A DNA stretch of 7,624 nt from Desulfuromonadaceae bacterium (GTDB lineage Bacteria > Desulfobacterota > Desulfuromonadia > Desulfuromonadales > Geopsychrobacteraceae), in NCBI GenBank assembly GCA_030639985.1, contig DAOWKG010000205.1, positions 1-7,624 on the forward strand. The letters are read 5' to 3'. Under the pieces are notes generated by a model, which saw only the letters and a program-made list of their open reading frames with translations, had not been told where the DNA came from and did not search any database. This document shows, piece after piece, positions 5,561 to 7,327 of the stretch (position 1 is the stretch's first letter; each line of letters opens with the position of its first letter). A program made the translations under genes and the position numbers.

Positions 5561-5854
5561 TCACTTAACGACCCTAAGTCCACCCCGACCTGAAGTTCCA
5601 CCCGTGGGAGGCGGAGGATCATCATCTGGCAGAGGAACAGGTTCAGATTCTATCTCACCATTTTCATTATCAGTAAGCTGTGGCATAGCTCCGGTCAGGA
5701 GCATTTTTTCAATCGAACCAGCAAGCGTCAAACATTGCTGCATACAAACCTTACGCGCTGGACACATGGTACAATCAGCTTCGCCAGCAGCGGCCTTAAG
5801 GCAATGAATCAACAGTTCGACACTTTCCAATTGTGTCAGGGGAACAAAATACAT
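5561..5854 (-). CDS. Small four-Cys protein of unknown function, 97 aa
   Basis: I do not recognise a named family. Residues 1-60 look like a small helical domain carrying C28-x2-C31-x5-C37-x3-C41 (CTMCPARKVCMQQC), plus a separate Cys18. This arrangement could bind zinc or an iron-sulfur cluster, but no partner motif settles which. Residues 61-97 are a low-complexity tail: acidic, then Pro-rich (DDDPPPP), then Gly-rich and basic. There is no signal peptide or membrane segment. It is certainly expressed with its neighbours: its ATG is nine bases after the aroF stop and its Shine-Dalgarno (AGAAGGA, 5859-5865) overlaps that stop codon, pointing to translational coupling. It sits between aroF and serC, so a role in aromatic or serine metabolism or its control is possible but not shown. 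Confidence 0.82.
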   Translation of the reverse strand: MYFVPLTQLESVELLIHCLKAAAGEADCTMCPARKVCMQQCLTLAGSIEKMLLTGAMPQLTDNENGEIESEPVPLPDDDPPPPTGGTSGRGGLRVVK

Positions 5855-5863
5855 AATTTCCTT

Positions 5864-6886
5864 CTATGCCATATCGCGATCTGCAACCTTGGCAAACTGG
5901 CGCAATTTATCCATCATTACCTGAAAATCATCGGGGCGCAACGATTGAGGACCATCGCTGGCAGCTTTTTCGGGACAAGGATGGACTTCGACAATCAACC
6001 CATCAGCCCCGGCAGCGGCAGCGGCATAAGACATCGGCGCGATCAATGATGCGTGGCCGGTAGCGTGGGAGGGGTCAATAATGACCGGCAAGTGGGTTTG
6101 TTGTTTCAGTACCGGAACAGCGGAGATATCGAGGGTATTGCGAGTTGCTGTTTCAAAGGTACGAATCCCACGTTCACATAGAATCACCCGGCGATTACCT
6201 TCAGCAAGAACGTATTCAGCGCTCATCAAAAATTCCTGAATAGTAGTCGACATACCCCGCTTGAGCAAAATCGGCTTATCAATCTGACCAAGCATTTTTA
6301 ACAAGGCAAAGTTTTGGATATTCCGAGCCCCAACCTGCATGACGTCGGCATATTTGGCTACCAGTTCGACATCACGAGGATTGACCACCTCGGTAACAAC
6401 CGGCAACCCGGTCAACTCACGTGCCTCAGCTAACAGTTTCAGACCATCTTCTTCCATCCCCTGAAAAGAGTATGGACTAGTGCGTGGTTTGTAAGCACCG
6501 CCACGCAACATTCTAGCACCAGCCCTTTTTACCGCAACTGCTGTTTCACAAATTTGCTCCCGGCTTTCAACGGCACAAGGACCTGCCATCACGACAAATT
6601 CCTTACCACCGATAGTCAGGCCTGGCACTATTTCAATTTCACTCGGCTGCGGCTGTACCTCACGGCTAGCCAGTTTATACGGTTTGAGGATTGGCACTAC
6701 GTTTTCCACCCCGGGCATCAACTGCAGCGCCTGCAGCTTTTCCTTCCCCTGCTCATCACCAACCGCACCGATAACATTGCGGGTTTCACCATAGATAACG
6801 TGAGGGGTATAACCTAATTCAACGATTTTCTTTTCAACCGCCGCAAGATCCGACTTCTCTGCCCCTTTTTTCATTACAATAATCAT
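5864..6886 (-). CDS. aroF: 3-deoxy-7-phosphoheptulonate (DAHP) synthase, type I-beta, 340 aa
   Basis: Condenses phosphoenolpyruvate and erythrose 4-phosphate to DAHP, the first step of the shikimate pathway. An N-terminal ferredoxin-like regulatory domain (about 1-70, [17 protein letters not shown]...) precedes the barrel, as in the Thermotoga-type enzyme, where it mediates Tyr/Phe inhibition. Catalytic motifs: AGPCAVES (101-108), [16 protein letters not shown] (128-143), LLKRGMS (207-213), DPSHATG (271-277) and [17 protein letters not shown]. By family comparison the metal ligands are Cys104, His274, Glu300 and Asp311, all present. The frame is open to 7006, but family proteins start MIIVM, and the ATG at 6886 has AAGGAG six bases upstream. 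It is the first enzyme gene of the operon, preceded by a Phe-rich leader peptide and terminator. Symbol: equivalent genes are called aroF, aroG or aroA in different genomes. Confidence 0.96.
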
Positions 6887-6898: not shown

Positions 6899-6924
6899 CT
6901 TCGCGCTGCGAAAGAAACGGCAAA

Positions 6925-6949
6925 AGACCGTCAGGCTTCCCAACGGTCT
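6925..6949 (-). terminator. Second hairpin in the aroF leader, weak terminator-like
   Basis: In the transcript AGACCGTTGGG (6949-6939) pairs with CCTGACGGTCT (6935-6925), 11 pairs with two G-U, loop AAG. It ends in TTTTG, and a further T/C-rich stretch follows. The short T tract makes it a poor terminator on its own. It lies between the main attenuator and the aroF ribosome binding site and could be a back-up terminator or a stabilising 5' structure for the read-through mRNA. Confidence 0.5.
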
Positions 6950-6964
6950 CATTTTCATCAGTGT

Positions 6965-7011
6965 AAAAAAGAAAAACCATGGGAGAACTGTCAGCCGTTC
7001 CGCCATGGTTT
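6965..7011 (-). terminator. Attenuator: intrinsic terminator in the aroF leader
   Basis: In the transcript AAACCATGG (7011-7003) pairs with CCATGGTTT (6982-6974). After one C-C mismatch, GGAAC (7001-6997) pairs with GTTCT (6988-6984) including one G-U, around an eight-base loop. The stem runs straight into TTTTTCTTTTTT (6976-6965). A strong terminator 79 bases upstream of the aroF ATG and 26 bases after the leader-peptide stop makes sense only as a conditional stop. Confidence 0.88.
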
Positions 7012-7067
7012 GTGTTGCCTGAAGTTTTAAAACTCCTTACACACGTTCCCCTTGGGCAGACGGCTGA
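6991..7067 (-). promoter_or_regulatory. Antiterminator pairing for the aroF attenuator
   Basis: TCAGCCGTCTGCC (7067-7055), the codons just after the Phe run of the leader peptide, can pair with GGCGGAACGGCTGA (7004-6991): eight pairs, one bulged A at 6999, then five pairs including one U-G. The second strand is the inner 5' half of the terminator, so the two structures exclude each other. A competing short hairpin GGCT/AGCC (7075-7072 with 7065-7062) could hold the antiterminator strand when no ribosome is stalled on codons 16-17. The pairings are read from the sequence; the switching is inferred from known amino acid attenuators. Confidence 0.75.
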
Positions 7068-7120
7068 AAAAAGCCAAAAAACCAAAAGAAGCTATTAAAG
7101 TAAGAAGCGCTAAAAAACAT
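7037..7120 (-). CDS. Phe-rich leader peptide of the aroF operon, 27 aa
   Basis: A short ORF with ATG at 7120 and TAA at 7037-7039, preceded by AGGGA (7127-7131) six bases upstream. It encodes MFFSASYFNSFFWFFGFF (residues 1-18) followed by QPSAQGERV. Nine of 27 residues are Phe (2, 3, 8, 11, 12, 14, 15, 17, 18), with one Tyr and one Trp; eight of the nine Phe codons are TTT. This is the make-up of leader peptides that sense charged tRNA-Phe, such as that of enteric pheA. A ribosome short of Phe-tRNA would stall at codons 11-15, freeing the antiterminator strand that starts at codon 18/19, and aroF would be read. The peptide itself need have no function. It is cis-acting and sits 150 bases before the aroF start codon. 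Confidence 0.9.
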   Translation of the reverse strand: MFFSASYFNSFFWFFGFFQPSAQGERV

Positions 7121-7145: not shown

Positions 7146-7174
7146 AGAGTACACAAGCCGGCAAGACGGTGCAA
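7146..7174 (-). promoter_or_regulatory. Candidate promoter of the aroF operon leader
   Basis: Read on the minus strand: TTGCAC (7174-7169), 17 bases, TACTCT (7151-7146). The hexamers are weak matches but the spacing is right. A start about 7 bases downstream would leave some 18-20 untranslated bases before the leader peptide, typical of attenuator transcripts. Other placements in 7121-7251 are possible. Confidence 0.35.
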
Positions 7175-7209: not shown

Positions 7210-7238
7210 TTGACTATCCTCTGCCCTTTAGCTATAAA
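7210..7238 (+). promoter_or_regulatory. Promoter of tRNA-Phe
   Basis: TTGACT (7210-7215), 17-base spacer, TATAAA (7233-7238): close to the sigma-70 consensus with ideal spacing. Transcription would begin near 7245, a few bases before the mature tRNA at 7252. It diverges from the aroF leader promoter region. Confidence 0.85.
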
Positions 7239-7251
7239 CGGGATTCGATTC

Positions 7252-7327
<76 letters not shown>

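What the first reader, a model, noticed from the sequence alone, without database searches (positions are those of the whole stretch)
7037..7120. Unannotated Phe-rich leader peptide upstream of a DAHP synthase operon
A 27-codon ORF below usual gene-calling length has nine Phe residues, with the run FFWFFGFF, a good Shine-Dalgarno site, and lies directly before a terminator in the aroF leader. Such peptides are established for pheA, pheST and other enteric operons. Here the target would be the entry enzyme of the shikimate pathway in a type I-beta (Thermotoga-like) form, in what looks like a deltaproteobacterial genome. Whether this case has been described is not known to me.
Basis: partly seen in the sequence, partly recalled or inferred. 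Interest (0 to 1): 0.85.

Follow-up and report, generated by a model that had tools for sequence, protein, structure and literature searches.

The report
Aromatic-sensing two-terminator attenuator before aroF
Just ahead of its gene for the first enzyme of aromatic amino acid synthesis, this bacterium carries an open reading frame for a 27-residue peptide with nine phenylalanines, followed by two terminator-like hairpins whose strands can pair in a chain, an arrangement with counterparts in three bacterial orders; ribosomes short of phenylalanine, and likely of tyrosine or tryptophan, are predicted to stall there and so switch the enzyme on.

Summary
The Phe-rich ORF (7120-7037, minus strand) is the leader peptide of a predicted ribosome-mediated attenuator of aroF (type I-beta DAHP synthase) in a Desulfuromusa-like MAG. 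An aromatic-rich ORF stands in all 100 distinct leaders of the main set, in 34 of 36 sampled class hits (the other two are not before aroF), and, with more Tyr, in 29 of 30 Syntrophales loci. Trp is kept in 96 of 97. The conserved RPSA stretch is an RNA constraint: it is antiterminator strand 2, which pairs with strand 3 of terminator T1 and co-evolves with it. The 3' arm of T1 (strand 4) pairs with the 5' arm and loop of T2 (strand 5) and co-evolves, while most control pairings do not: a possible relay in which one stalled ribosome opens two terminators. A divergent tRNA-Phe gene sits beside the leader in 44 of 64 loci. Phe leaders before aroF are known in Corynebacterium and proposed in Acholeplasma, so the kind is known; lineage, Trp/Tyr content, tandem relay and tRNA-Phe synteny appear new. 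Against: T2 lacks a good U tract in 9 of 90, and 4:5 is weaker than T2 in 84 of 90. Nothing is tested experimentally.

The parts
7037..7120 (-). leader peptide ORF MFFSASYFNSFFWFFGFFQPSAQGERV (predicted control codons Phe, Trp, Tyr)
   Evidence: aromatic ORF in 100 of 100 distinct leaders of the main set
7055..7066 (-). strand 2 (CAGCCGUCUGCC): 5' half of the antiterminator, inside the ORF (codons Q-P-S-A)
   Evidence: coordinates; pairing -25.3 kcal/mol in the window; co-evolution
6997..7010 (-). strand 3: 5' arm of terminator T1 and 3' half of the antiterminator
6975..6988 (-). strand 4: 3' arm of T1, also partner of strand 5
6965..6974 (-). U-rich tail of T1
   Evidence: at least 5 T of 8 after the stem in 88 of 90 leaders
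6932..6949 (-). strand 5: 5' arm and loop of hairpin T2
6922..6931 (-). strand 6: 3' arm of T2 (6931-6925) and its short U run UUUU (6925-6922)
5864..6886 (-). aroF, DAHP synthase type I-beta, the controlled gene
   Evidence: NCBIfam PRK08673, 506.7 bits against a cut-off of 335; PDB 1rzm E 2.6e-105
7146..7174 (-). possible promoter of the leader transcript (TTGCAC, 17 nt, TACTCT), read by eye
   Evidence: sequence only; the promoter scan reported none
7252..7327 (+). tRNA-Phe (GAA), divergent from the leader
   Evidence: ARAGORN; divergent tRNA-Phe in 44 of 64 loci
7210..7238 (+). possible promoter of tRNA-Phe (TTGACT, 17 nt, TATAAA), read by eye
   Evidence: sequence only; not reported by the scan

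Best explanation
The Phe-rich ORF is a leader peptide that is predicted to control aroF by ribosome-mediated transcription attenuation, in which shortage of charged tRNA-Phe (and likely tRNA-Trp or tRNA-Tyr) would stall the ribosome on the aromatic codons. Predicted order of events: a ribosome stalled on the core codons (in the window best on codons 12-14, Phe-Trp-Phe) leaves strand 2 free; strand 2 pairs with strand 3 (antiterminator) and T1 cannot form; the freed 3' arm of T1 (strand 4) pairs with strand 5 as it emerges, which delays or prevents the second hairpin T2; RNA polymerase reaches aroF. When charged aromatic tRNAs are plentiful the ribosome runs on toward the stop codon and masks strand 2, so 3:4 (T1) and then 5:6 (T2) form and transcription ends before aroF. 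Shown by computation: the ORF, T1, T2, their conservation, and the co-evolution of 2:3 and 4:5. Inferred: translation of the ORF, stalling, termination at either hairpin, and the regulatory effect of 4:5.
For: Conservation: ORF in 100 of 100 distinct leaders and in 34 of 36 fetched class hits, the other two not lying before aroF. Codons: Phe TTT 534 / TTC 152, whereas RPSA is nearly fixed in its nucleotides (CCG 65 of 68 Pro, TCT 62 of 63 Ser, GCC 67 of 72 Ala), as an RNA strand would be. 2:3: own pairing -22.6 against -20.1 swapped among 42 representatives, 0 of 10000 permutations; control 2x5 flat (z=0.48). T1 covaries, 33 both-side-changed cells against 8.1 shuffled; T2, 12 against 2.4. 4:5: 93.0% of cells paired against 90.4% in column shuffles (0 of 500 reach it) and at most 59.6% when slid; own -16.4 against -14.6 swapped among 42 representatives, 0 of 10000, control 3x6 z=0.00; independently in Syntrophales 0 of 5000, control z=0.54. 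State folding of the window: A-site on codons 12-14 keeps 2:3 with T1 open; codons 17, 18, 22, 25 and stop give T1, then T2. Over 97 leaders aromatic codons make 51% up to the last codon whose stall allows 2:3 and 6% after it; Syntrophales, 29 leaders, 37% and 3%; with the ribosome at stop 2:3 does not form in 126 of 126.
Against: No expression, termination or ribosome data. At equilibrium with T1 complete, a stall keeps T1 open in only 40 of 97 (main set) and 15 of 29 (Syntrophales) leaders, and in the window not on codons 2, 3, 8, 11 or 15, so the switch must be largely kinetic. In the window's codon 12-14 states T2 wins over 4:5 by about 1 kcal/mol once T2 is complete. 4:5 is weaker than T2 in 84 of 90. 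T2 is missing or unaligned in 10 of 100 and has 3 or fewer T of 8 in 9 of 90, yet 4:5 is kept there, so T2 may have another role. The number of 4:5 pairs with a change on both sides is not above shuffles (193 of 500). On the class side 4:5 shows no own-versus-swapped signal (z=-1.12), and at class level the control 3x6 also scores (z=-6.67). In the first, smaller test a second control (strand 4 with the T2 3' arm) was slightly positive (208 of 5000). The Trp codon is more often paired than others in the free leader (0.79 against 0.61), so part of its conservation may be structural. Permutations do not remove relatedness.
Confidence: 0.78

Rival explanations
1. Only T1 is regulated; T2 is a plain fail-safe terminator or a 5'-leader stabilising hairpin, and the 4:5 complementarity is a by-product, for example of T2 having arisen as a copy of T1.
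For: T2 lacks a good U tract in 9 of 90 and is missing or unaligned in 10 of 100; T2 is stronger than 4:5 in 84 of 90; on the class side and in Syntrophales T1 and T2 share arm sequences.
Against: If T2 were a copy of T1, the reciprocal pairing 3:6 should be kept as well; it is not (z=0.00 among 42 representatives, z=0.54 in Syntrophales) while 4:5 is, though at class level 3:6 also scores. The T2 loop, free of the T2 stem, co-evolves with strand 4 (z=-5.0 among 42 representatives).
Confidence: 0.3
2. The leader senses Phe only; Trp and Tyr are carried along for RNA pairing or by chance.
For: Phe dominates in the main set (mean 7.1 of about 28 residues; Tyr never exceeds Phe in 97); Trp codon pairing 0.79 against 0.61; a tRNA-Phe gene, not Trp or Tyr, lies alongside; in C. 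glutamicum Tyr availability has no effect on the aroF operon (PMC11802643 section 7).
Against: Trp in 96 of 97 main-set leaders, before the antitermination boundary in 95 of 96, in 34 of 34 class-side leaders and 26 of 29 Syntrophales leaders; Phe-Tyr exchange at several columns; Tyr exceeds Phe in 19 of 29 Syntrophales leaders, equals it in 6 and is fewer in 4.
Confidence: 0.35
3. A nascent-peptide arrest leader (TnaC-like): the peptide itself stalls the ribosome in response to free aromatic amino acid.
For: A recognisable core F-F-W-F-G-F-R-P-S-A.
Against: The conserved non-aromatic residues are explained by the RNA strand (nearly fixed codons), and the aromatic ones interchange (Phe/Tyr) and move between clades.
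Confidence: 0.05
4. Chance T-rich frame in front of an ordinary terminator.
For: T-rich DNA favours TTT codons.
Against: 0 of 2000 shuffle trials; kept across three orders.
Confidence: 0.01

Closest known systems
Corynebacterium glutamicum aroR leader before aroF (Neshat et al. 2014, known to me through PMC11802643 section 7 and passages of PMC4046766)
   Same: Leader peptide with aromatic codons (Phe-Tyr-Phe) before a DAHP synthase gene; ribosome-mediated attenuation; induced by Phe limitation.
   Different: Another phylum, one short aromatic motif; no Trp and no tandem hairpin relay mentioned in what I read. Sequences were not compared.
uORFC-13-1 motif of Acholeplasma aroF (PMC8632094, section 26 read)
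   Same: uORF with Phe codon(s) and an apparent intrinsic terminator, found only before aroF.
   Different: 24 sequences, at least one Phe, another phylum, one terminator described; proposed, not tested.
Computational attenuator predictions before aromatic-pathway operons (Merino database, as told in PMC1173090 section 36, read)
   Same: Attenuators predicted before a Tyr-type DAHP synthase-tyrA operon in Vibrio; two attenuator units named for the Streptococcus pneumoniae supraoperon.
   Different: Other lineages; no Desulfuromonadia leader named in that section; its Table 7 and the database itself were not seen.
E. coli pheL-pheA and pheST leaders (recalled; named in PMC11802643 section 7)
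   Same: Phe codons, terminator and antiterminator switch.
   Different: Other target genes; one terminator (recalled); no Rfam family matches this window at gathering score apart from the tRNA.
his operon leader with hairpins AB, CD, EF (passages of PMC10989985; the classical BC/DE alternative is partly recalled)
   Same: A chain of alternating pairings along the leader passes the ribosome's position on to the last hairpin.
   Different: In his only EF is described as followed by uridines; here both 3:4 and 5:6 carry U tracts in most members.

Membership tests
classical ribosome-mediated transcription attenuator | short ORF rich in codons of the amino acid(s) made downstream | tested here: met
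classical ribosome-mediated transcription attenuator | intrinsic terminator between ORF and structural gene | tested here: met
   T1 with U tract, at least 5 T of 8 in 88 of 90; covariation; termination itself not tested
classical ribosome-mediated transcription attenuator | mutually exclusive antiterminator using the 5' arm of the terminator | tested here: met
   2:3 in 99 leaders, mean -24.1 kcal/mol; co-evolution
classical ribosome-mediated transcription attenuator | stall on control codons permits, ribosome at stop prevents, the antiterminator | tested here: met
   folding with an assumed 13-nt mask; but at equilibrium with T1 complete only 40 of 97 and 15 of 29 stay open
classical ribosome-mediated transcription attenuator | expression responds to amino acid limitation | not testable with these tools
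   no expression data for this organism
Rfam leader families (Phe leader and others) | covariance model reaches gathering score | tested here: not met
   only the tRNA matches in the window; none in L224, L055, L242, L099, L263; hits below threshold are unrelated families
his-type multi-hairpin relay leader | chain of alternating pairings between neighbouring hairpins | tested here: met
   2:3 and 4:5 co-evolve, 3:6 and 2:5 do not, among 42 representatives
his-type multi-hairpin relay leader | only the last hairpin is a terminator | tested here: not met
   T1 has the better U tract; T2 has at least 5 T of 8 in 69 of 90
C. glutamicum aroR leader | homologous leader sequence | not tested
   not fetched; compared from text only

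The most novel reading that the evidence does not exclude
A domino attenuator: one ribosome stalled on a mixed Phe/Trp/Tyr codon block opens two successive terminators, because the 3' arm of the first is the antiterminator of the second. It serves as the all-aromatics gate of the shikimate pathway across Desulfuromonadia and Syntrophales, retuned from Phe-rich toward Tyr-rich between clades, and in Desulfuromonadales it is physically paired with the tRNA-Phe gene whose charging it reads.
Probability: 0.5. Interest if true: 0.82.

Novelty: new variant of a known kind. Interest (0 to 1): 0.72.

Why it matters
It would supply a predicted regulator for the entry step of aromatic synthesis in Desulfuromonadia, the class that holds Geobacter, and in Syntrophales; I found no such regulator in the papers searched. 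The tandem arrangement gives a concrete, testable design for raising the on/off ratio of an attenuator: a second terminator slaved to the first by shared strands. The shift from Phe-rich toward Tyr-rich control blocks, with Trp kept, offers a natural series for studying how attenuators are retuned between amino acids. The conserved divergent tRNA-Phe gene raises the question whether tRNA supply and the leader that reads its charging are co-regulated.

Tried and rejected
Considered and rejected: chance ORF; extension of aroF into the leader (the 380-aa frame from 7006 is cut by a stop in the relatives whose corresponding short ORF, ending ...FEN, is listed); 'WFFFF' ORFs read across T1 in some relatives, which are the terminator's own U run in frame; a known Rfam element.

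Negative or weak results: the promoter scan found none. Sixteen Nitrospinota aroF loci (L091-L098, L100-L104, L106-L108) show no comparable leader even with a relaxed scan; L110 none; L111 has a terminator and only a weak candidate ORF. The paralogous aroF of the own genome (L002, 49%) has no leader. On the class side the 4:5 swap test is not significant.

Literature: ten searches of open-licence PMC text gave no description of this leader in Desulfuromonadia or Syntrophales (listings). Passages seen: PMC2965389 (no hits), PMC2659441, PMC1262725, PMC4046766, PMC10989985, PMC4448311 (its Geobacter entries are c-di-GMP and Tuco riboswitches, its aroF entries E. coli and Synechococcus), PMC3766115 (deltaproteobacteria not analysed there). 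Sections read: PMC8632094 section 26, PMC11802643 section 7, PMC1173090 section 36. Vitreschak et al. 2004 (attenuation in proteobacteria) is not held, and the Merino attenuator database named in PMC1173090 was not seen; either could hold related predictions.

Rows dropped before counts: aroF loci under 70% identity were left out of the main set. In the first pairing test two of 67 leaders had no T1 picked (L065, L089), 52 of 65 had a T2 picked, and L028's T1 was mis-picked. 9 of 66 loci were left out of alignment A1 because T2 seemed absent by eye, one of which (L062) does have T2. 9 of 99 model-aligned leaders were left out of the T1-T2 tests and L080 was not matched by the model. L060 and L178 were left out of the peptide statistics; L255 (no leader found) was left out of the Syntrophales state tests. 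In some searches letters in rare insert columns were left out of the tested segments. L238 repeats the leader of L109. In Syntrophales T2 was found by a rule that asks for a U run, so its U-tract count there is circular, and the leader ORF was picked by its aromatic content.

Full report
WHAT IS THERE. The window comes from a 2.06 Mb, 345-contig MAG whose nearest named relatives are Desulfuromusa. On the minus strand, reading toward aroF: a 27-codon ORF (7120-7037), a 25-nt gap, hairpin T1 (arms 7010-6997 and 6988-6975) with the tail UUUUUCUUUUUU, hairpin T2 (5' arm and loop 6949-6932, 3' arm 6931-6925) with the short run UUUU, then AAGGAG and aroF (6886-5864). aroF is a DAHP synthase of the form with an N-terminal domain. 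A 97-aa ORF without NCBIfam match and serC follow closely. A tRNA-Phe gene (GAA) lies divergently at 7252-7327.

IS IT MORE THAN CHANCE. No shuffle trial of the region (0 of 2000) gave such an ORF. I gathered aroF upstream regions by protein search in the family and in named genome contigs (capped at the best 80 of 154), and by a covariance model of T1-T2 (R1, built from 57 sequences) across the order and class. R1 matched 118 of 136 order genomes at E<=0.01 and 160 of 277 class genomes at E<=1e-4; some of these are weak chance hits (four family genomes without a close aroF have one), so the counts are upper figures. Of 60 order hits fetched, 57 lie directly before aroF and 3 weak ones do not. 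Of 36 hits fetched from the class outside the order, 34 lie before aroF (33 by script, L219 judged by eye from its sequence) and 2 do not. Of 148 upstream regions of the main set 100 are distinct; 98 are Desulfuromonadales-type and two (L099, L109) lie elsewhere in the class. Every one holds the aromatic ORF; L060 is cut by the contig end, and for L178 the script took a wrong frame although the right one is listed. In the family 44 genomes were searched: 33 have a close aroF ortholog and all 33 have a strong R1 match; the other 11 have only a 49-52% paralog or, in G011, a 31% match.

WHAT THE PEPTIDE SAYS. Over 97 leaders: Phe in 86 and 87 of 97 at two core columns, Trp in 90 of 97 at the next column and in 96 of 97 overall, Phe/Tyr exchange at three columns (32/27, 52/18, 56/25). 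Phe codons vary synonymously (TTT 534, TTC 152). The RPSA stretch hardly does: CCG 65 of 68, TCT 62 of 63, GCC 67 of 72. So the aromatic residues look chosen for the residue, and RPSA for the nucleotides. In 34 class-side leaders the mean is Phe 7.0, Tyr 2.8, Trp 1.06, with Trp in 34 of 34.

STRAND 2 AND STRAND 3. The RPSA codons pair with the 5' arm and loop of T1; for all 99 leaders examined a duplex was found, mean -24.1 kcal/mol, the weakest being L178 with its wrong frame. The partner sequences change together: GUCUGCCC/GGGCAGAC in many, GCCUGCCC/GGGCAGGC (L065, L072), GUCUACCC/GGGUAGAC (L109), GUCUGUCC/GGACAGAC (L105), CAUCGACCCG/CGGGUUGAUG (L087, L088). Own pairings beat swapped ones in permutation tests with 65 leaders (0 of 5000) and with 42, 22 and 8 representatives (0, 0 and 7 of 10000); control 2x5 is flat (z 0.48, -0.29, 0.27).

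THE SECOND HAIRPIN AND STRAND 4:5. It covaries as a helix. The 3' arm of T1 with the start of its U tract is complementary to the 5' arm and loop of T2: 93.0% of 627 cells paired in the 57-sequence alignment, against 90.4% in column shuffles (0 of 500 reach it) and at most 59.6% when slid; 18 cells with both sides changed against 6.7 in shuffles (0 of 500). The number of pairs with a change on both sides is not above shuffles (4 against 3.3, 193 of 500). By duplex energy, own against swapped: first test, 52 leaders, z=-3.97, with control 3x6 z=-0.41 and control strand 4 x T2 3' arm z=-1.80 (208 of 5000); 90 leaders z=-8.0; 42, 22 and 8 representatives z=-5.9, -4.7, -2.3; the part that lies in the T2 loop alone z=-8.8, -5.0, -2.8, -2.8. 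Controls: 3x6 z=-1.76 (421 of 10000), 0.00, 0.10, -0.79; T1 loop x T2 loop near zero; strand 4 with the spacer or with the stretch after T2 has the opposite sign. Across the class z=-14.6, but there 3x6 also reaches -6.7, because both arms differ between the groups; within the 34 class-side leaders the test is not significant (z=-1.12) although the duplexes are long (mean -21.4 kcal/mol, 14 uninterrupted pairs in L224).

AN INDEPENDENT LINEAGE. L112, a contig titled Syntrophaceae (order Syntrophales), prompted a search of the order of its genome: 54 of 60 genomes have an aroF match at E<=1e-110, and the 30 best loci, its own among them, were fetched. 29 of 30 have a leader of another flavour, for example YYFWSYFYF (means over 29: Tyr 3.9, Phe 2.9, Trp 1.1; Tyr exceeds Phe in 19, equals it in 6, is fewer in 4; Trp in 26; L255 has no leader). 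T1 was found in 30 of 30 and T2 in 28 of 30. 4:5 co-evolves again (z=-4.07, 0 of 5000; 3x6 z=0.54); 2:3 more weakly (z=-2.24, 81 of 5000; control 2x5 z=-1.17, 622 of 5000). With Geobacter (L099; Geobacterales) and Desulfuromusa (Desulfuromonadales) this makes three orders.

RIBOSOME STATES. Taking 13 nt from the start of the A-site codon as masked, folding of the window gives: stall at codons 12-14 (Phe, Trp, Phe): 2:3 with T1 open, and 4:5 formed until T2 is complete, when 5:6 wins by about 1 kcal/mol. Codon 11: T1 closes when complete, but with T2 complete the fold is 2:3 with 4:5. Codons 2, 3, 8 and 15, and no ribosome: 2:3 before T1 is complete, T1 afterwards. Codons 17, 18, 22, 25 and the stop codon: T1, then T2. 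Over 97 leaders the last codon whose stall permits 2:3 before T1 is complete lies a median of 10 codons before the end; aromatic codons are 51% up to that codon and 6% after it; 37% and 3% in 29 Syntrophales leaders; at the stop codon 2:3 does not form in 126 of 126. Against this, with T1 fully made, equilibrium folding keeps T1 open in only 40 of 97 and 15 of 29, so the model needs 2:3 to form first, as in classical attenuators (recalled).

LIMITS OF THE RELAY. 2:3 is stronger than T1 in 68 of 90, but 4:5 is stronger than T2 in only 6 of 90. T1 has at least 5 T among 8 after the stem in 88 of 90; T2 in 69 of 90, with 3 or fewer in 9 of 90, where 4:5 is nevertheless kept; the window itself has 4. 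On the class side T2 has at least 5 T in 25 of 34 and 3 or fewer in 3. T2 may therefore be a terminator in most members and something else in some. This is why the relay carries about even odds while the attenuator itself is well supported as a prediction.

THE tRNA GENE. In 44 of 64 main-set loci of sufficient length a tRNA-Phe gene lies divergently within 800 nt upstream of the leader start; its middle is at 166-231 nt in 43 and at 149 in one. 18 of the other 20 have no tRNA-Phe in the fetched piece, three of these with under 500 nt upstream of aroF. 11 of 33 further short loci also contain tRNA-Phe. None was found on the 36 class-side pieces, which are short, or the 30 Syntrophales loci. 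In the own genome, which is 90% complete, the full-length tRNA-Phe matches once, here; one partial match (46 of 76) lies elsewhere.

WHAT IS KNOWN. A Phe-Tyr-Phe leader controls the aroF operon of C. glutamicum under Phe limitation, with no effect of Tyr (PMC11802643 section 7; PMC4046766 passages). A Phe uORF motif lies before Acholeplasma aroF (PMC8632094 section 26). Attenuators were predicted before a DAHP synthase-tyrA operon in Vibrio, and two attenuator units in a Streptococcus supraoperon (PMC1173090 section 36). The his leader has three consecutive hairpins of which the last is followed by uridines (PMC10989985 passages). None of ten paper searches turned up this leader in Desulfuromonadia or Syntrophales, but only open-licence PMC text is held. 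Hence: a member of the classical attenuator kind, apparently new in lineage and target enzyme form, and a variant in its two interlocked hairpins and mixed aromatic control block.

Noticed in passing
window 7252-7327 (+): Divergent tRNA-Phe gene beside a Phe-rich leader, found in 44 of 64 main-set loci; it seems to be the only full-length tRNA-Phe in the own (90% complete) genome.
   Followed up: yes
L002 (G000:C163:6566-7549, -): Second, 49% identical aroF in the own genome, reported with one in-frame TAA in the matched stretch; what looks like an aminotransferase-type coding sequence lies directly upstream and there is no leader peptide.
   Followed up: partly
G023 (C176 and C128): One genome carries two aroF copies, each with its own T1-T2 match.
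   Followed up: no
L045 (JADFVC010000393.1): Contig labelled Chloroflexi whose aroF upstream region is identical over 300 nt to that of a family genome (L019, G032); probably a mis-binned or mis-named MAG contig.
   Followed up: no
L089, L192: About 200 nt inserted between T2 and aroF, so the leader lies more than 330 nt upstream.
   Followed up: no
spacer between T1 and T2 and the stretch after T2, e.g. L029, L105, L176: Sequences flanking T2 look complementary to each other by eye (for example CTGTTGAA / TTCAACAG), as an outer helix that would end near the aroF ribosome-binding site.
   Followed up: no
window 5561-5854 (-): 97-aa ORF with a cluster of Cys residues between aroF and serC, no NCBIfam match.
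   Followed up: no
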